A stretch of 64,000 nucleotides of DNA from Salinibacter grassmerensis. GTDB taxonomy: Bacteria > Bacteroidota > Rhodothermia > Rhodothermales > Salinibacteraceae. The notes below the pieces were generated by a model. It worked only from the letters and a program-made list of their open reading frames with translations. It was not told where the DNA came from and searched no databases. Position numbers and translations under genes: made by a program. The DNA lies in NCBI RefSeq assembly GCF_947077765.1, contig NZ_CAMTTF010000005.1, positions 181,501-245,500 of the forward strand. Direction: 5' to 3'. Below, one piece after another: positions 1,831 to 64,000 of this stretch. How positions within the stretch are numbered: the first letter of the stretch is position 1; every line of letters begins with the position of its first letter.

Positions 1831-4329
1831 GTGGACATAAGCTACAACTGGCTAAATCAGTACGTCGACCACGACTGGCCCCCCGAGGACCTGGCCGAGC
1901 GCCTCACCATGGCCGGGCTTGAGGTGGAAACGGTCAGTCCGCTGGGGCAGTCGCTCGACGGCGTGGTGGTCGGCGAGGTGACCGCCGTCCGCGAGCACCC
2001 AAACGCCGACCGCCTCGTGCTCTGTGACGTGCACCTCGGCGACGGGGCCCCTGCCCAGATTGCCTGCGGCGCATCCAACGTGGCCGCGGGGCAGAAAGTC
2101 CCGGTCGCCACCGTCGGCACCACCCTGTCGCTCCCCGATCCGGACACTCCCGAGGCGCGGCAGGAGCTTACTGTGGAGGCACGCGAACTGCGGGGGGAGG
2201 CCTCGGAGGGCATGATCTGCGCGGAGGACGAACTCGGGCTCTCGGACGACCACTCCGGCATCATGGTGCTCGACGACGACGCGCCCGTCGGCACGCCGTT
2301 TCCGGAGTACCTCGACGACCACGACCTTCCCGCCACCGACGCGGTGCTCGACATCGACCTCACCCCAAACCGTCCCGACGCCACCAGCCATCTCGGCGTG
2401 GCCCGCGACGTGGCGGCCCTGGCGGACAACGCGCTGCGAACACCGCCGGTCGACCTGCCTTCGCCGGGCGGCACCGTGGCCGAGGAAATCACCGTCGACG
2501 TTCGGGACGAGGCCGGGTGCCCCCGGTACGTGGCCCTAGTGGTGCGGGGCGTGAACGTGACCGAGTCGCCCCTCTGGCTGCGCCGCCGCCTCACGGCCAT
2601 CGGCCTGCAGCCGCGCAACCACGTGGTGGACGTGACCAATTTCGTGCTTCACGAGTGCGGCCAGCCGCTCCACGCCTTCGACCTCGACGCGATTGCCGAC
2701 GACACGATCGTCGTTCGTCGCACCGACGACGAAACGTCCTTCACGACGCTCGACGACGAGGAGCGCGAGCTCCCCGCGGATACGCTTCTCATTTGCGACG
2801 CCGAGGCCCCGGTGGCCGTGGCGGGCGTCATGGGCGGCGCCAACTCCGAGGTCTCCTCCGACACGACCGACGTGCTCATCGAGAGCGCGTACTTCGACCC
2901 GTCCACAATCCGCCGCACCGCCAAGGCACTCGACCTTCAGACCGACTCGTCGTACCGCTTCGAGCGAGGCGTCGACCGCGACGGGCAGGCGTGGGCCGCC
3001 GCCCGCGCCGCCCGTCTGATCGCCGAGCTGGGCGGCGGCACCGTCGTCCCCGGCATGGTCGACGAACACTCTACCCCGCCCCCCACCAAGACGGTCGCCC
3101 TCCGCCCCGACCGGCTCACCCAGGTGTTGGGGACCGACGTGGCGACCTCCGAGGCGACTCGTCTGCTCGACGCCATCGGCTTCAACGTCGAGGCGGGCGA
3201 GGACGCGCTGCACTGCACCGTGCCGACCTGGCGGCCCGACGTGTCGATCGAGGAGGACCTGATCGAGGAGGTGGCCCGCCTTTACGGCTACGACCAGATT
3301 CCGGAGCCGGAGCGTGTGCCCGTTCCAAGCCGCACGCCGCGGCAGCCGCCGGTGGAGACGCTGGAGCGGCAGACGCGCGGGCTCCTGAAGGGCCTCGGCT
3401 ACCGCGAGATCTACACCAACAGCATGCTGCGCGAGGACCGCGCCGAGCGCTTCAACGTGCCCCCGGCCGGCGGCGATCGAGCGCCCGTCGTGGAGACGAA
3501 AAACCCAATCTCGGAGGAGATGGCCGCCCTGCGTCCACGGCTGCTGCCGGGGGCGCTAGAGGTTATGCAACACAACCGAAACCACGGGCAGGAGGCGCTC
3601 CGCGTGTTTGAGTTCGGACACGTCTTTCGCCGTGCCGCCGACCCGGACGATCCAGTCGTCCCCGGCTACAGCGAACACCCCGCGTTGCTGATTGCACTCA
3701 GCGGTCCCCATGCGCCCACCGGGTGGGACGTCGAGCCGCGCGCAGCCGATATTTTCGACCTGAAGGGCACCGTCGAGACCTTCCTCGAAGACCTGCGCGT
3801 GCCGGACCTCCAATTGCGTCCCCGCGACGAGGACGCGGCCGCGGCGGACGAGACCACGCCGGTCACTCAGCACCACATTGACGTGGCCACTGCGGACACG
3901 CCGCTCGGCACCGTGGCCCGGGTCCGGGAGGACGTGGCGACCGACTTCGACCTCGACACCCCAATCTTCGTGGCCGAGTTCAACTGGGCCGCCCTCGTGG
4001 AAGCCGCCCGGGCGGAACGGCACCGCAATTACGAGCCGGTGAGCCGCTTCCCGGTCGTGGACCGCGATCTTGCCGTGCTCGTGCATTCCGACCAGCCGGT
4101 GGGACCGCTGCAGGATACGATCCGCGACGCCGGGGCCCCCTTGCTTCGCCGCGTCGACGTGTTTGACACGTACGCGGGCGAGGGGATTGAGGAGAACGCC
4201 AAGAGCGTGGCGTTCACTCTTCGCTTCGGCGCCGACCGCACGCTGACCGACGAGGAGGTAGATGCCCAGATTGACACCATCGTTGAGCGCCTCGAGGGGG
4301 ATCACGGCGCCCGTCTGCGGCAGCAATAG
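1831..4329 (+). CDS. pheT: phenylalanine--tRNA ligase beta subunit
   Basis: Structural, editing and tRNA-binding subunit of PheRS. The start is GTG, read as MDISYNWLNQYV. Domains follow the bacterial order: N-terminal segment, EMAP/OB-type tRNA-binding domain (about 40-155, with the HPNADRL motif), B3/B4 editing domain (about 210-400, containing VMGGANSEVS), B5 domain (about 410-480, ending near LYGYDQIPEPERVP), catalytic-like core, and the C-terminal FDX-ACB anticodon-binding domain (from about 735, RFPVVDRDLAVLV). At 832 residues it is slightly longer than typical, with extra Asp/Glu-rich stretches (for example around the DEDAAAADE segment) consistent with salt adaptation. No frameshift is seen. 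Confidence 0.97.
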   Translation: MDISYNWLNQYVDHDWPPEDLAERLTMAGLEVETVSPLGQSLDGVVVGEVTAVREHPNADRLVLCDVHLGDGAPAQIACGASNVAAGQKVPVATVGTTLSLPDPDTPEARQELTVEARELRGEASEGMICAEDELGLSDDHSGIMVLDDDAPVGTPFPEYLDDHDLPATDAVLDIDLTPNRPDATSHLGVARDVAALADNALRTPPVDLPSPGGTVAEEITVDVRDEAGCPRYVALVVRGVNVTESPLWLRRRLTAIGLQPRNHVVDVTNFVLHECGQPLHAFDLDAIADDTIVVRRTDDETSFTTLDDEERELPADTLLICDAEAPVAVAGVMGGANSEVSSDTTDVLIESAYFDPSTIRRTAKALDLQTDSSYRFERGVDRDGQAWAAARAARLIAELGGGTVVPGMVDEHSTPPPTKTVALRPDRLTQVLGTDVATSEATRLLDAIGFNVEAGEDALHCTVPTWRPDVSIEEDLIEEVARLYGYDQIPEPERVPVPSRTPRQPPVETLERQTRGLLKGLGYREIYTNSMLREDRAERFNVPPAGGDRAPVVETKNPISEEMAALRPRLLPGALEVMQHNRNHGQEALRVFEFGHVFRRAADPDDPVVPGYSEHPALLIALSGPHAPTGWDVEPRAADIFDLKGTVETFLEDLRVPDLQLRPRDEDAAAADETTPVTQHHIDVATADTPLGTVARVREDVATDFDLDTPIFVAEFNWAALVEAARAERHRNYEPVSRFPVVDRDLAVLVHSDQPVGPLQDTIRDAGAPLLRRVDVFDTYAGEGIEENAKSVAFTLRFGADRTLTDEEVDAQIDTIVERLEGDHGARLRQQ

Positions 4330-59992: not shown

Positions 59993-60107
59993 GGCGGGTA
60001 CCGGCGGATGAGCGGCGTCTGGAGATGGACCTGTGCTCCGGGAATGGCCCGATGCAGGGCTGGATCCCACGGATGGAAGCGTGCTCCCGATATGGGGAAG
60101 CTAGGGG

Positions 60108-60194
60108 CGGAGGGGGAGGGATTCGAACCCCCGGGGCCTTGCGGCCCGCCGGTTTTCAAGACCGGTGCATTCGACCAGGCTCTGCCACCCCTCC
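60108..60194 (-). tRNA. tRNA-Ser (anticodon UGA)
   Basis: A type II tRNA of 87 bases. The 7-bp acceptor stem is GGAGGGG (60194-60188) with CCCCTCC (60115-60109) and discriminator G at 60108. The anticodon loop CTTGAAA places TGA at 60158-60156. The long variable arm GGGCCGCAAGGCCC and the T-arm motif GGTTCGAATCC are intact. CCA is not encoded. The gene is 115 bases before the LytS-type kinase on the same strand, and marks the border where the sequence composition changes. Confidence 0.97.
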
Positions 60195-60585
60195 GGATGA
60201 TTTTCGGGCTTCAAACCCCTCTCTGCGCTGCAAATGGTGGCTCATTGCGTGACCTGGTATACAGAACCGGACTCACCGTTTCGGCAGAAAATGGGATTTG
60301 TTATAATACTGCTATCGAGCCGCCCGAAGATACTCTCGTGGGGAAGCTTCTTTGTCTCTCCCTCTGTGGTAGTAAACCCTTTACTTCCGCAAAATCTCAG
60401 CTCGAGAGCTTGAATTTTGGAATTTTGAATTTCAACTGTTCGACCTCCAACGTCATCCGTCACTGCGAAGAGCTACTCTCTCCAAACAGAAGCTTTGTGG
60501 GAACGGATTGGAACTGAAACCAGCCGTTCGGAGGGGATTTCATTTCTTCTGTCCTCGATGTGAACAGAGACTATCGGGAATCCGC
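60195..60585. other. start of low-GC accessory region, no supported gene
   Basis: 391 bases directly 5' of the tRNA-Ser gene. Composition drops to about half GC (29 of 60 bases in 60301-60360, by count). TTTG followed by TATAAT occurs at about 60297-60306, and a tandem GAATTTTG pair at 60412-60427. A 73-residue minus frame (60242-60463) has no family resemblance and is not called. No second copy of the tRNA end, which would mark an attachment site, was found in the window. Confidence 0.5.
60364..60376 (+). repeat. 13-base direct repeat, left copy
   Basis: CTGTGGTAGTAAA; it recurs as CTGCGGTAGTAAA at 61124-61136 (12 of 13 identical). The two copies flank the gene at 60586-60969 in the same orientation. 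Confidence 0.4.
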
Positions 60586-60969
60586 TCAACTCTGTGCCCT
60601 CAACTCCCTTGCTCGGTCGAGCCGATTCTCAAACTTTTTTTCCTTTTTCTCGGTGCCGAGCTTGGCTTGTCTGAGACACCGCTCAAGGATACGAACCTCA
60701 TCGTCGTAGTCCTCTTCTTTCCGATATAGAATCGCTAAACGCTGGTAGGGGAAGCTGCCGACAAACTCTTCTTCTACGAGATGCCAGTAAACCTCCTTTG
60801 CTGTATCAATCAAATGGTCGGAACGCTCTTCTTCATCTTCTAACTCAGCTTCAACGGCACGACGTTCGAGTTTACGAGCAAAGTAGTTTTTCTCTGGAGC
60901 GTTCAGTTCTCGCCAATCCTCGACTTCGTCGGGGTCAATGTCTTGCGGCTTGTCCCACTTCTTCGTCAT
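60586..60969 (-). CDS. small TPR-like protein in the accessory region
   Basis: A 127-residue charged, helical protein. It begins MTKKWDKPQDIDPDEVEDWR; a helix rich in Glu/Arg (ARKLERRAVEAELEDEEER) leads to a TPR-like helix pair at about 73-100 (FPYQRLAILYRKEEDYDDEV..LERC), the PxxRLAxLYRK pattern often seen in small accessory-region TPR proteins. The last helix is Lys/Glu/Arg-rich. No signal or membrane segment. A 31-residue frame overlaps its start codon (ATGA, 60966-60969). Function unknown; TPRs mediate protein contacts. Confidence 0.75.
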   Translation of the reverse strand: MTKKWDKPQDIDPDEVEDWRELNAPEKNYFARKLERRAVEAELEDEEERSDHLIDTAKEVYWHLVEEEFVGSFPYQRLAILYRKEEDYDDEVRILERCLRQAKLGTEKKEKKFENRLDRARELRAQS

Positions 60970-61061
60970 ATCGTGGTGTTGCTGTTCTCAGACGAACACG
61001 TAGCTTCTTTTTTCTCCATCGAAGAACTTAGCGGTTGGTAAACCGAATGCCCAACGGACAT
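60966..61061 (-). CDS. possible 31-residue leader peptide overlapping the TPR-like gene
   Basis: ATG at 61061-61059 opens a 31-codon frame (MSVGHSVYQPLSSSMEKK..) whose TGA at 60968-60966 overlaps the next gene's ATG in an ATGA arrangement that would couple translation. Its start codon lies in the loop of a perfect 7-bp hairpin (61052-61072). A stop codon precedes the ATG directly. No family resemblance; the only support is this geometry. Confidence 0.25.
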   Translation of the reverse strand: MSVGHSVYQPLSSSMEKKEATCSSENSNTTI

Positions 61062-61072
61062 CTAATCCGTTG
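61052..61072. repeat. perfect 7-bp inverted repeat with 7-base loop
   Basis: CAACGGA (61052-61058) and TCCGTTG (61066-61072) with loop CATCTAA. No T-run on either strand follows, so it is not a terminator. It lies in the divergent gap between the TPR-like gene (minus) and the zinc-ribbon gene (plus), where an operator would be expected. Confidence 0.5.
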
Positions 61073-61123
61073 CTCCACCTCCCAAAATCCCAGTCAGACC
61101 GCTTGAAACACCGATTTTCAGAA

Positions 61124-61136
61124 CTGCGGTAGTAAA
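61124..61136 (+). repeat. 13-base direct repeat, right copy
   Basis: CTGCGGTAGTAAA, matching 60364-60376 at 12 of 13 positions. Confidence 0.4.
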
Positions 61137-61308
61137 AGACCTTGCTACCCACCCCGATTTTGGGGCTGTATCACCCGTTCAACACATATTAGGAAGTGTT
61201 TGAGCTTCATCTGCTCACGGTGATTGAAACCGTCCCTCCCGTGCCGTAATCTACCGCAACGGAAGGCACCTCGGCTCATTTCAGCCTTGAATAGATGCCC
61301 CGCTCTCA

Positions 61309-61842
61309 GTGATTACAGGTATTCTCTTTGTTCAGGCGGTGGTGTTCGCCGTTCTCTCTGGCGTAGTTGCCAGTAATAATAACAGAGACGCCACCAAGTG
61401 GAGCATAATTGGCTTCCTGTTCGGGCTTTTCGGGTTCATTGCGGCAATCGCCGTGGGGGAGGCGGAAGAGACACAACCTTCCAGCCGTCAGACGAGCCAG
61501 TCATCAAGCACAAGCACACAGGAGTTTGACCCTGACGACCACGAGAAGAAGTGCCCCGACTGTGCCGAATACATCAAGCTTGAGGCAAGGGTCTGCAAGC
61601 ACTGCGGACACGAGTTCTCAGAAGAAGAGGTTGAACAGCAGGTGGAAGAGAGAAGAGAGAGCGTCAAAGAAAGCGAAAGTGCCAATGGAGGAAAGAGGGA
61701 CGAAGAAAACTACAAGTCAGACGAATACGACACTGAAGAGATACTTTCCACACACGACTTCAATGGCGTCGGAATCTGCGAGGACTGTGATTACACAAAG
61801 GGATACGTCAAAGCGAACAATTACGTCTGCCCGGGAAGCTAA
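61309..61842 (+). CDS. membrane-anchored zinc-ribbon protein
   Basis: A 177-residue protein with GTG start. Two N-terminal hydrophobic helices (about 1-20 and 31-50: IIGFLFGLFGFIAAIAVG) form a hairpin anchor. After a Ser/Gln/Thr linker comes a zinc ribbon with two CxxC knuckles, Cys82-Cys85 (CPDC) and Cys96-Cys99 (CKHCG), in the UPF0547-like arrangement KKCPDCAEYIK..ARVCKHCGHEF. A Glu-rich helix follows, and a third pair Cys157-Cys160 (CEDC) with Cys174 near the C-terminus. The family resembles small membrane zinc-ribbon proteins of uncertain function often found in phage or mobile regions. An ATG start is not available in the proximal frame, so the exact start is uncertain. Confidence 0.78.
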   Translation: MITGILFVQAVVFAVLSGVVASNNNRDATKWSIIGFLFGLFGFIAAIAVGEAEETQPSSRQTSQSSSTSTQEFDPDDHEKKCPDCAEYIKLEARVCKHCGHEFSEEEVEQQVEERRESVKESESANGGKRDEENYKSDEYDTEEILSTHDFNGVGICEDCDYTKGYVKANNYVCPGS

Positions 61843-62166: not shown

Positions 62167-62862
62167 CTAGAGGATTGAAAGCACCCACAATACGACCGTA
62201 TCAGTAAGTGCGTAAGCAGTATCGGGGAAGCGTGAGAGGAGAAGACCGAAGATTAGGAGATACACCCCGAACCACTCCAGCCGAAGGGTGATGTCTCCTA
62301 TATTCGCCGTCTCCACCATTTCACGCAACTGGCGCATCTTCTCTTTCAGCGAACTTACCTCCTCCTCAATTTTCTCTTCAAGGCGCTCAGCCTCCTCCTC
62401 AATACGCTCGTCCAACTCGTCTAGCTTGCTCTCCAGCCTTTCTACGTCCTGTTTTATCAGGTCTATTTTTTCACTGAGTGGAAGGTCATCAGAGTAGCTT
62501 GGCGTTACGTGTGCGCTAACCGAGGTGGAAGTGGATATGGGTATCGTTCCACCCTCAATTGTGACAGAGCCTCCCGTAAAGATACTCCAGAAATCCTCAA
62601 ACGGCTCTTTCAATCTCTTCCAGAACGGTTTCCGTCCGAAGCTCTGTAGCGTCTTTTCAATACCTACGGCAACGGTCAGAAAACCACCCAGCTGGAGCAT
62701 AGCACCCAGCGTGGAAATAGCTGATACCGACGCCATACCCGCTGTCCCGACCAGCAAGACGGAAACAACGAGAAAGACTTGAAATCCCGTCTTGATGGCT
62801 GGGTCAAACCTGCACAGGCGACCCCAGATGCGCTGAAATACAGCCCTTATTGAACTCCACAT
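62167..62862 (-). CDS. membrane/coiled-coil protein, paralogue A
   Basis: A 231-residue protein of a family I do not recognise. Order: N-terminal amphipathic helix, two transmembrane helices (about 26-48 and 52-70), motif LQLGGF..AVGIEKTLQSFGR (57-77), a beta-like linker GGSVTIEGG (97-105), a strong coiled coil (about 128-187, RLESKLDELDERIEEEAERL), motif ANIGDITLRLEWFGV (186-200), and two C-terminal transmembrane segments (about 200-230). Every one of these elements reappears in the same order in the neighbour at 63018-63776, so the two are tandem paralogues. Both ends lie in the membrane with the coiled coil between, suggesting a bracket or ring-like assembly. Function is unknown. Confidence 0.82.
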   Translation of the reverse strand: MWSSIRAVFQRIWGRLCRFDPAIKTGFQVFLVVSVLLVGTAGMASVSAISTLGAMLQLGGFLTVAVGIEKTLQSFGRKPFWKRLKEPFEDFWSIFTGGSVTIEGGTIPISTSTSVSAHVTPSYSDDLPLSEKIDLIKQDVERLESKLDELDERIEEEAERLEEKIEEEVSSLKEKMRQLREMVETANIGDITLRLEWFGVYLLIFGLLLSRFPDTAYALTDTVVLWVLSIL

Positions 62863-63017
62863 AGGTCTTCAACGATTTCAATAGGTAGAGCGGCGTTTAG
62901 CCTGCCAGAGCTATTCCCGGTGGCATCTACCGAGTGTGAGAAGCTCTCTCAGACCGACAATCGGGCGTTTTACGATACGGTCTCGGTGTGTGGCTGATAG
63001 ATCCGCTCTTCACCGTT

Positions 63018-63776
63018 TCAGTCGGCATACCAGTGAAGCGACCAGAGAAGCATTCCAGCCACAACGGGAACGGCGAGAACCCAATATGCGGGCTGGAGGA
63101 GGGAGGGAAAACTGGCAAGCGGGACGCCATAGACAAAAAATGAGACGCCGCTCCACTCCAACCATAGCGCACCCTCACCTACATTCGCTTCCCTGATCTT
63201 CTCCCGCACGTCTTGAACCCTCTCCTCAAACGCCTTGACTTCCTCCTCAATCTTGTTCTCCAGAAGCTCAGTCTTCTCATCAATGTGGCGGCGATTAGCC
63301 TTAACCTCATCTCTCACATCTGCGAGTGACTGCTCCAACTTACGAATACGCTCCGACAGGGTCTCGGGATATGTGAGACCTTTATCCAAGGCTGAGCCGT
63401 GGGCATCTATTGTTTCTGGTCCGTCTTCCACTTCCACTGAGCCCCTGATGGTGGTATCAAATATGTCGGTAAAATCGTAGACCCAAGGTAGAATGCGACT
63501 TGTTGAGGGTATCCGCCCAAACACCTCAAGCGTCCGTTCCAGCCCGTAAGCGGCGAGGACGAAGCCGATGAGCTGAAGCAACACGCCAGTGCCACGGATG
63601 ATTGGGTTAGGCTGGGCAAGAAAACTTATGAGGTAGAGCCAACCCAATAGTCCTATTGTAATCCCCGCCACGGATTTGAGGATGACAGGAGCGTCGGTCC
63701 ACCACTCCCCGAGGTTGCTCCTGATTGCTTTCCAGAACCAAACTTTGAACAACTTGCTCTCCAGCCACTCAGCCAT
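63018..63776 (-). CDS. membrane/coiled-coil protein, paralogue B
   Basis: A 252-residue paralogue of the gene 155 bases downstream. It has a longer N-terminal helix (1-28, WLESKLFKVWFWKAIR), two transmembrane helices (about 32-53 and 60-79), LQLIGFVLAAYGLERTLEVFGR (67-88), the linker RGSVEVEDG (111-119), a coiled coil (about 138-197, LSERIRKLEQSLADVRDEV; KIEEEVKAFEERV), ANVGEGALWLEWSGV (197-211) and C-terminal membrane segments (211-247). Identical or similar landmarks to paralogue A: LQLxGF, GxExTLxxFGR, GSVxxE, LSExI, KIEEEV, ANxGxxxLxLEWxGV. Hetero-oligomerisation with A is a reasonable inference. No enzymatic motif is visible. Confidence 0.82.
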   Translation of the reverse strand: MAEWLESKLFKVWFWKAIRSNLGEWWTDAPVILKSVAGITIGLLGWLYLISFLAQPNPIIRGTGVLLQLIGFVLAAYGLERTLEVFGRIPSTSRILPWVYDFTDIFDTTIRGSVEVEDGPETIDAHGSALDKGLTYPETLSERIRKLEQSLADVRDEVKANRRHIDEKTELLENKIEEEVKAFEERVQDVREKIREANVGEGALWLEWSGVSFFVYGVPLASFPSLLQPAYWVLAVPVVAGMLLWSLHWYAD

Positions 63777-63891: not shown

Positions 63892-64000
63892 TCAGGCGTC
63901 TTCCTCAGTTCCCTCACCGTGTTCGTCCAGAAAATCCCGACCCGTGAAGAGAGCCTTTCCGCCACGGGCGACAACGAAATGGTCAGGCTCTCCCTCTTTC
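63892..64000 (-). CDS. 3' end of a gene running off the window
   Basis: The last 35 codons of a minus-strand reading frame that enters at the window edge: it reads PDHFVVARGGKALFTGRDFL, then DEHGEGTEEDA and TGA at 63894-63892. The strand-turn-strand-helix look and acidic tail are protein-like, but the fragment is too short to identify. It is 115 bases upstream of paralogue B in the same direction and may be co-transcribed with it. Confidence 0.5.
   Translation of the reverse strand, partial: KEGEPDHFVVARGGKALFTGRDFLDEHGEGTEEDA

What the first reader, a model, noticed from the sequence alone, without database searches (positions are those of the whole stretch)
62167..63776. Tandem paralogous membrane/coiled-coil proteins of an unrecognised family
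Two adjacent genes share an identical order of elements: two membrane helices, LQLxGF...GxExTLxxFGR, a GSVxxE linker, a heptad coiled coil with KIEEEV, the ANxGxxxLxLEWxGV signature, then two more membrane segments. I know no family with this plan. Retention of two diverged copies side by side in a low-GC accessory region next to a tRNA suggests a two-component membrane assembly, possibly a defence, conflict or envelope-stress system. Sequence shows the paralogy; the function is inference.
Basis: partly seen in the sequence, partly recalled or inferred. Interest (0 to 1): 0.65.

Follow-up and report, generated by a model that had tools for sequence, protein, structure and literature searches.

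The report
Orphan membrane-protein pair on mobile island
Two neighbouring genes encode related membrane proteins of a family not found in the searched collections outside one bacterial genus; they ride on a small DNA element inserted into a tRNA gene, a kind of element whose relatives carry antiviral systems, so they may be a new defence component, but this is untested.

Summary
A (62167-62862, -) and B (63018-63776, -) are tandem paralogues, 36% identical (E 2e-27); the parts before, within and after the coil each beat 1000 shuffles. B is under purifying selection (dN/dS about 0.23-0.28). No Pfam or NCBIfam model shown passes its cut-off; PHROGs and PADLOC give only weak matches, mostly to the coil.

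The context was missed because the window ends inside it. A and B are cargo of a 10.7-kb integrated element: 52-bp perfect repeats, one being the 3' end of tRNA-Ser, an integrase at the far end, and the empty site in relatives.

The 'two-component pair' is not supported: the family was found in 2 of 114 genomes of the order, and the other genome has B alone. With B recur a 62-aa gene and a zinc-ribbon gene (split over two frames there).

Defence is plausible by association only: 4 of 4 comparator islands examined carry restriction-modification genes (ORFs chosen partly by eye, no base rate), while this element carries no recognised defence gene. Best guess: membrane-tethered coiled-coil proteins in element-borne defence or exclusion. 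The function is inferred.

The parts
60105..60195 (-). tRNA-Ser (anticodon TGA); its 3' end is the element's attachment site
   Evidence: ARAGORN; Rfam tRNA 55.3 bits
60144..60195 (.). left 52-bp direct repeat (att); the right copy lies outside the window at G000:C5:252327-252378
   Evidence: the repeat finder (D3, 100% over 52 nt, spacing 10,683); single copy at empty sites in relatives
60586..60969 (-). 127-aa ORF in the element, weak TPR-like match below cut-off
61045..61181 (-). 137-nt conserved intergenic repeat shared with islands in G013 (1 copy) and G015 (2 copies, one of 118 nt)
61309..61842 (+). 177-aa membrane zinc-ribbon protein (UPF0547), convergent to A/B; three significant relatives lie near B in G015, the one next to B' being split over two reading frames
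62167..62862 (-). gene A, 231 aa: two hydrophobic stretches, coil 129-186, LEWFGV, one clear further hydrophobic stretch
63018..63776 (-). gene B, 252 aa: two hydrophobic stretches, coil 140-197, LEWSGV, two further hydrophobic stretches
63892..64000 (-). 3' part of the 62-aa ORF upstream of B (whole gene L005:6392-6580); conserved upstream of B in G015
   Evidence: runs out of the window

Best explanation
A and B are two diverged copies of one lineage-restricted membrane protein, carried as cargo by a 10.7-kb element that a tyrosine integrase inserted into the 3' end of a tRNA-Ser gene (repeats, integrase and empty site shown; the act of insertion follows from them). Each is probably an inner-membrane protein with helical hairpins on either side of a cytoplasmic helix of about 58 residues that self-associates as a coiled coil (topology and oligomerisation inferred from hydropathy, charge and a low-confidence model). 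The recurrent unit is the 62-aa gene plus B, with a zinc-ribbon membrane gene beside it; A looks like an added copy (its absence in G015 is shown, the direction of change is inferred). The function judged most likely is an element-borne defence or superinfection-exclusion trait: the coil senses or scaffolds at the membrane during infection and the hairpins alter the membrane or block entry (inferred). Subjective probabilities: cargo of an integrated element 0.95; membrane-anchored coil 0.9; defence or exclusion function 0.35.
For: 52-bp perfect repeats 10,683 bp apart, one in tRNA-Ser; integrase at the far end; the two flanks meet sharing exactly those 52 bp in G011, G014, G015 (long flanks) and G018, G021, G022 (128-148 bases of the right flank); GC 0.517 in the element against 0.669/0.706 in the flanks. 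Paralogy. Purifying selection on B. Conserved 62-aa neighbour (61% in the alignment) and zinc-ribbon neighbour. The second occurrence (G015, 65% identity) lies in a low-GC region with integrase, ArdA, HsdS, HsdR and a PDC-S11 candidate. Same 528-aa protein family in G013:C3, with a type IIG/ISP enzyme. The two nearest integrases in the genus sit beside tRNA-Ser ends with type I restriction-modification genes, one also with bSEFIR and dGTPase matches. Helical model of B.
Against: No defence model gives more than a weak match to A, B or seven other element proteins (best for A LmuB 3e-4 over 137-189). Restriction-modification genes may be common on islands in general; no base rate was measured and the ORFs given to PADLOC were partly chosen by eye. 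The zinc-ribbon gene next to B' in G015 is split over two frames and a 62-aa relative occurs in the own genome away from B (G000:C4, 29%, E 2.9e-5), so the recurrent unit is not tight. The structure model is poor (mean pLDDT 48.3, pTM 0.23). Topology was not tested by a dedicated predictor; A's last membrane segment was not resolved. A was not tested for selection.
Confidence: 0.4

Rival explanations
1. Obligate two-component membrane complex: A and B form a hetero-oligomer through their matched coils.
For: Gap-free coil alignment of equal length and the same motif order in both; same strand, 155-bp gap.
Against: The only other genome with the family has B alone. No A-B model was made; the tool models single chains.
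Confidence: 0.2
2. Element-maintenance role: A/B anchor the element's replication machinery to the membrane or exclude a second copy of the element.
For: The same element carries a 528-aa phrog_4756 protein shared with the G013 region and with phages, which may be a replication protein (recalled motif resemblance, not tested).
Against: A/B are absent from the G013 region with relatives of the 528-aa and 122-aa genes, and B' occurs in a genome without a 528-aa relative at E 1e-8, so A/B are not part of a constant core.
Confidence: 0.15
3. Host-adaptive envelope or osmotic trait unrelated to phage: membrane scaffold for a hypersaline niche.
For: The genus is most likely Salinibacter, a halophile (52-bp tRNA-Ser match to Salinibacter altiplanensis; inference); one Salinibacter ruber island is reported to hold many membrane genes (PMC6060240, passage seen).
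Against: Found in 2 of 114 genomes of the order, so it is not a general adaptation; both occurrences are in low-GC regions that hold an integrase gene.
Confidence: 0.2
4. Orphan genes without a lasting role, young and decaying.
For: Very narrow distribution; motifs relaxed in G015; the zinc-ribbon neighbour in G015 is split over two frames.
Against: dN/dS of B against B' about 0.23-0.28 at dS 0.8-1.0; both A and B keep full open frames.
Confidence: 0.1

Closest known systems
tRNA-flanked strain-specific genomic islands of Salinibacter ruber (HGT-GIs; PMC6060240, passages only)
   Same: tRNA end, recombinase, strain-specific, hypothetical genes
   Different: Smaller (10.7 kb; the passage seen gives 22-45 kb); precise att and empty sites shown here; the passages seen do not describe this cargo
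tRNA-Ser islands in G013:C57 and G014:C1
   Same: Closest integrases found in the genus (59% and 53%), tRNA-Ser 3' ends with 4-7 mismatches of 52
   Different: About 22 and 26 kb between the tRNA-Ser-like sites, with type I restriction-modification genes; no A/B relatives by tblastn at 1e-4. In G014 both sites look like full tRNA-Ser genes, so its ends as one island are not proven
Element-like region in G013:C3
   Same: Relatives of the 528-aa and 122-aa genes, the 137-nt repeat, an integrase
   Different: Carries a type IIG/ISP restriction enzyme, no A/B; integrase only 24% identical; its ends were not mapped
Membrane-anchored coiled-coil defence protein (DUF4041) of PMC9519451 (passages only)
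   Same: Putative membrane anchor plus central coiled coil; found in a selection for anti-phage genes
   Different: [quoted passage not shown] no such domain was found in A or B, and no DUF4041 match was among those shown (25 of 47 for A, all 17 for B)

Membership tests
tRNA-integrated mobile genomic island | Integrase gene next to one att | tested here: met
   L005:12119-13222, Phage_integrase 1.2e-28, phrog_1 1.6e-54
tRNA-integrated mobile genomic island | Direct repeats with one copy in a tRNA 3' end | tested here: met
   52 of 52 nt
tRNA-integrated mobile genomic island | Empty site in relatives | tested here: met
   Flanks meet in 3 genomes with long flanks and 3 with 128-148 bases of the right flank, of 12 relatives searched; 5 uninformative, 1 without match
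tRNA-integrated mobile genomic island | Excision or transfer | not testable with these tools
   Needs PCR or reads
SLATT effectors | Match to the SLATT model including its membrane hairpin | tested here: not met
   Only NF033635 at E 0.026, 14.4 bits against cut-off 35, on residues 132-192 of B
XhlA / apolipoprotein-like helices | Score over the curated cut-off | tested here: not met
   A: 17.7 bits of 34.7 and 20.2 of 90, on the coil
DUF7470 (58-position membrane model) | Score over the curated cut-off | tested here: not met
   E 0.0064, 16.8 of 27 bits on residues 38-87 of B
Known anti-phage system protein | PADLOC match outside the coil | tested here: not met
   Matches to A and B centre on the coil, best 3e-4; one LeoBC match to B (E 0.002) runs 162-246, past the coil
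Anti-phage system (function) | Protects cells from phage | not testable with these tools
   Needs a plaque assay
Two-component paralogous complex | Both copies occur together in other genomes | tested here: not met
   Both copies in 1 of the 2 genomes with the family, the window's own

The most novel reading that the evidence does not exclude
A, B, the 62-aa gene and the zinc-ribbon membrane gene are a new kind of membrane-based anti-phage or exclusion system that occupies, on this element, the cargo place held by restriction-modification systems on related islands.
Probability: 0.2. Interest if true: 0.65.

Novelty: new variant of a known kind. Interest (0 to 1): 0.42.

Why it matters
It turns two orphan genes at a window edge into cargo of a mapped mobile element with a demonstrated empty site. 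If the cargo is a defence trait, it would be a membrane system without a good match in the defence library used here (PADLOC-DB 2.0.0 of 2023), in a genus where phage predation is thought to shape the accessory genome (PMC6060240, passages; host genus inferred). The candidate unit is small (62-aa gene, B, A, zinc-ribbon gene) and so easy to test.

Tried and rejected
Rejected: the weak hits of A/B searches in whole genomes (L003, L004, L007, L010-L012, L015-L021, L023-L026). Their frames were read. The script had shown the wrong strand for L004, L015, L023 and L026; one search read the right one. Most matches lie on the coil part; three run wider: L018 (118-231), L020 (51-195, a protein with further domains after the coil) and L024 (47-188, a frame with a stop inside). 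None shows the A/B motif order. Rejected: Streptomyces plasmid hit H3 (E 3), no coil, unlike A/B; the other six hits (E 7-9) and two (E 10, in a transposase gene) were not followed. Rejected: diversity-generating retroelement for the 137-nt repeat; no reverse transcriptase model match in G000, G013, G015, with the control search positive in 3 of 14 genomes. Rejected: structured RNA for that repeat; fold z -1.19, 24 of 200 shuffles fold as well, no Rfam match there at gathering score.

Led nowhere: scans of viral contigs with B and with alignment A1, GTDB contigs with A1, phages with B and A and plasmids with B by tblastn. AlphaFold model of B too poor for a fold search, so none was run. Solved structures: only weak matches, mostly on the coil, for A1, none for the 528-aa profile. 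Sequence-pattern scan: no promoter-like site, 3 terminator-like sites against 2.1 expected. Paper searches listed no paper that I could see to describe this family; no paper was read whole, only passages of PMC6060240 and PMC9519451, and search listings for the rest.

Full report
OBSERVATION. Two minus-strand ORFs lie at the stated places: A 62167-62862 (231 aa) and B 63018-63776 (252 aa). BLASTP gives 36% identity over 168 columns, E 2e-27. Because coils can mimic homology I split the proteins: the part before the coil scores z 13.5, the part after it z 10.3 and the coil z 7.8 against 1000 shuffles each, and no shuffle reached the observed score. So A and B are true paralogues. Against the one homologue found, B has dN/dS about 0.23 (NG86, dN 0.219, dS 0.969) or 0.28 (YN00, dN 0.229, dS 0.810) (an experimental Biopython module), so B is a real gene under selection. 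A was not tested this way.

ANATOMY. Hydropathy peaks lie near residues 29-72 (A) and 36-77 (B) before the coil; after it B has two (209-227, 226-244) and A one clear stretch (about 188-220), its last segment being unresolved. The N-terminal stretch carries 5 K+R against 1 (A) or 4 (B) D+E, which hints at an inside N terminus; that topology is inference. The coil is 58 residues (A 129-186, B 140-197). AlphaFold2 on B, with A as the only aligned relative, gave an all-helical model with mean pLDDT 48.3 and pTM 0.23; 39 residues, in the coil by the block means, reach pLDDT 70-90. I draw no fold from it.

FAMILY SEARCHES. No Pfam or NCBIfam model shown passes its curated cut-off for A or B, and PHROGs and PADLOC give only weak matches (for A, 25 of 47 Pfam and 25 of 28 NCBIfam matches were shown). 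Most lie on the coil. Exceptions are DUF7470 on residues 38-87 of B (E 0.0064, 16.8 of 27 bits) and phrog_20289 on 32-68 of A (E 0.0026), both short membrane stretches. In whole genomes, full relatives were found in 2 of 27 genomes of the family (3 had any match), 2 of 114 of the order (5 had any match), 2 of 244 of the class (9 had any match) and 2 of 395 drawn from the phylum (11 had any match). These sets overlap. The other matches are unrelated coil proteins or frames. The two genomes are the window's own (G000) and G015. Viral and GTDB contig scans and phages found none; plasmids gave none with B, two matches at E 10 with A and seven at E 3-9 with the first part of B, of which the best was looked at and is unlike A/B. 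Those collections may leave out records near the window's genome.

THE ELEMENT. The own genome continues past the window (L005 = G000:C5:239001-253559; window position = L005 position + 57500). A 52-bp perfect direct repeat lies at L005:2644-2695, the 3' end of tRNA-Ser, and at L005:13327-13378, 10,683 bp away. Beside the far copy is a tyrosine integrase (L005:12119-13222). GC is 0.517 inside, 0.669 and 0.706 outside. I searched the genus (13 genomes, own included) with each flank. In G011, G014 and G015 both flanks match over nearly their whole length and overlap by exactly the 52 bp; in G018, G021 and G022 the same holds with only 128-148 bases of the right flank matched. In G012, G013, G016, G017 and G020 the right query matched at tRNA-Ser little beyond the repeat, which is uninformative; G019 had no match. 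This is the empty site. The element therefore spans window 60144 to about 70878, and the window holds its first 3.9 kb. Other ORFs in it: a 127-aa ORF, the zinc-ribbon gene, A, B, a 62-aa gene, a 253-aa orphan, a 528-aa phrog_4756 protein, a 122-aa ORF, a 404-aa GYF_2 protein.

PAIRING. In G015 a single B-type gene (65% identity over 252 aa) is present and no A. Upstream of it is a relative of the 62-aa gene (67% over 55 aa by tblastn, 61% in the alignment), and convergent to it a zinc-ribbon relative, which in G015 is matched in two pieces in different frames and so looks broken. Two more significant zinc-ribbon relatives lie in the same stretch; a further ORF (L014:2970-3332) looks alike by eye and was not tested. 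A distant relative of the 62-aa gene also occurs away from B in the own genome (G000:C4, 29%, E 2.9e-5). So the recurrent unit is 62-aa gene + B with a zinc ribbon beside it, on two loci only.

DEFENCE CONTEXT. I examined four comparator islands. (1) G015 around B': lower GC from about 1362 kb to the end of the stretch read (1400 kb), with an integrase, ArdA, HsdS, HsdR, a PDC-S11 candidate and a GYF_2+RDD protein. (2) G013:C3, which has relatives of the 528-aa and 122-aa genes: type IIG/ISP restriction enzyme. (3) G013:C57, closest integrase (59%), between two att-like sites (6 and 7 mismatches of 52): HsdM, HsdS, HsdR-like, bSEFIR and dGTPase matches. (4) G014:C1, next closest integrase (53%), between tRNA-Ser-like sites with 5 and 4 mismatches, both apparently full tRNA-Ser genes, so its ends are less sure: HsdM and HsdR. 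So 4 of 4 examined carry restriction-modification genes. Limits: I chose which ORFs to scan partly by eye, did not scan L033 or L034 or the other integrase loci for defence, and have no base rate. In the window's element, nine proteins scanned with PADLOC (A, B, 253-aa, 528-aa, 122-aa, GYF_2, zinc-ribbon, 127-aa and 62-aa) and the G015 homologue gave only weak matches or none (GYF_2 again none at 1e-6). The integrase was not scanned there.

MECHANISM. Shown: paralogy, selection on B, location inside an element with att sites and empty sites, presence of B without A. Inferred: inner-membrane location, cytoplasmic coil, self-association, and a defence or exclusion function. I favour the last over element maintenance, because A/B are absent from the G013 region with the same 528-aa family and B' occurs in a genome with no 528-aa relative at E 1e-8, and over a general salt adaptation because the family is so rare.

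IDENTITY OF THE HOST. The 52-bp tRNA sequence matches exactly in Salinibacter altiplanensis AN15 and two uncultured Bacteroidetes genomes; I take the genus to be Salinibacter, an inference. Passages of PMC6060240 describe strain-specific islands of Salinibacter ruber flanked by tRNAs, repeats or recombinases, so the island type is known; the passages seen do not mention this family.

VERDICT. Interesting as a testable defence candidate, not a demonstrated new system.

Noticed in passing
window 61045-61181 (-); L032:2647-2783; L014:6881-7017 and 3384-3501: An intergenic repeat (137 nt, one copy 118 nt; 83-87% identity to the window copy) is shared by islands of three genomes. In one frame it begins after a TGA stop in all four copies and reads like a protein tail (window: YSPKIGVGSKVFYYRSSENR...). 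No Rfam match, no reverse transcriptase match in the three genomes.
   Followed up: partly
L005:7930-9516 (outside the window, G000:C5:246930-248516): 528-aa phrog_4756 protein with matches in 31 phage records, mostly Vibrio and Aeromonas, and in G013, G074 and another region of the own genome, G000:C4. Conserved ELDYDNLH and G(I/V)HDGFV motifs recall a family-A polymerase palm (recalled, not tested); no match among solved structures.
   Followed up: partly
L014:3640-8481: Three relatives of the membrane zinc-ribbon gene of window 61309-61842 in one island of G015, one of them split over two frames; a local expansion of unknown role.
   Followed up: no
L005:10475-11689 and L044:1558-2331: GYF_2-domain proteins occur in both islands that carry the B family; in G015 the gene lies between HsdS and the PDC-S11 candidate and has an RDD domain.
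   Followed up: partly
G013:C57:129994-151624 and G014:C1:29857-55446 (L087-L090): The nearest integrases of the genus sit beside tRNA-Ser 3' ends in regions with type I restriction-modification genes: a possible tRNA-Ser hotspot for defence cargo.
   Followed up: partly
L014:12550-13125: ArdA antirestriction gene (Pfam 4e-37) in the same low-GC region as a type I restriction system in G015.
   Followed up: no
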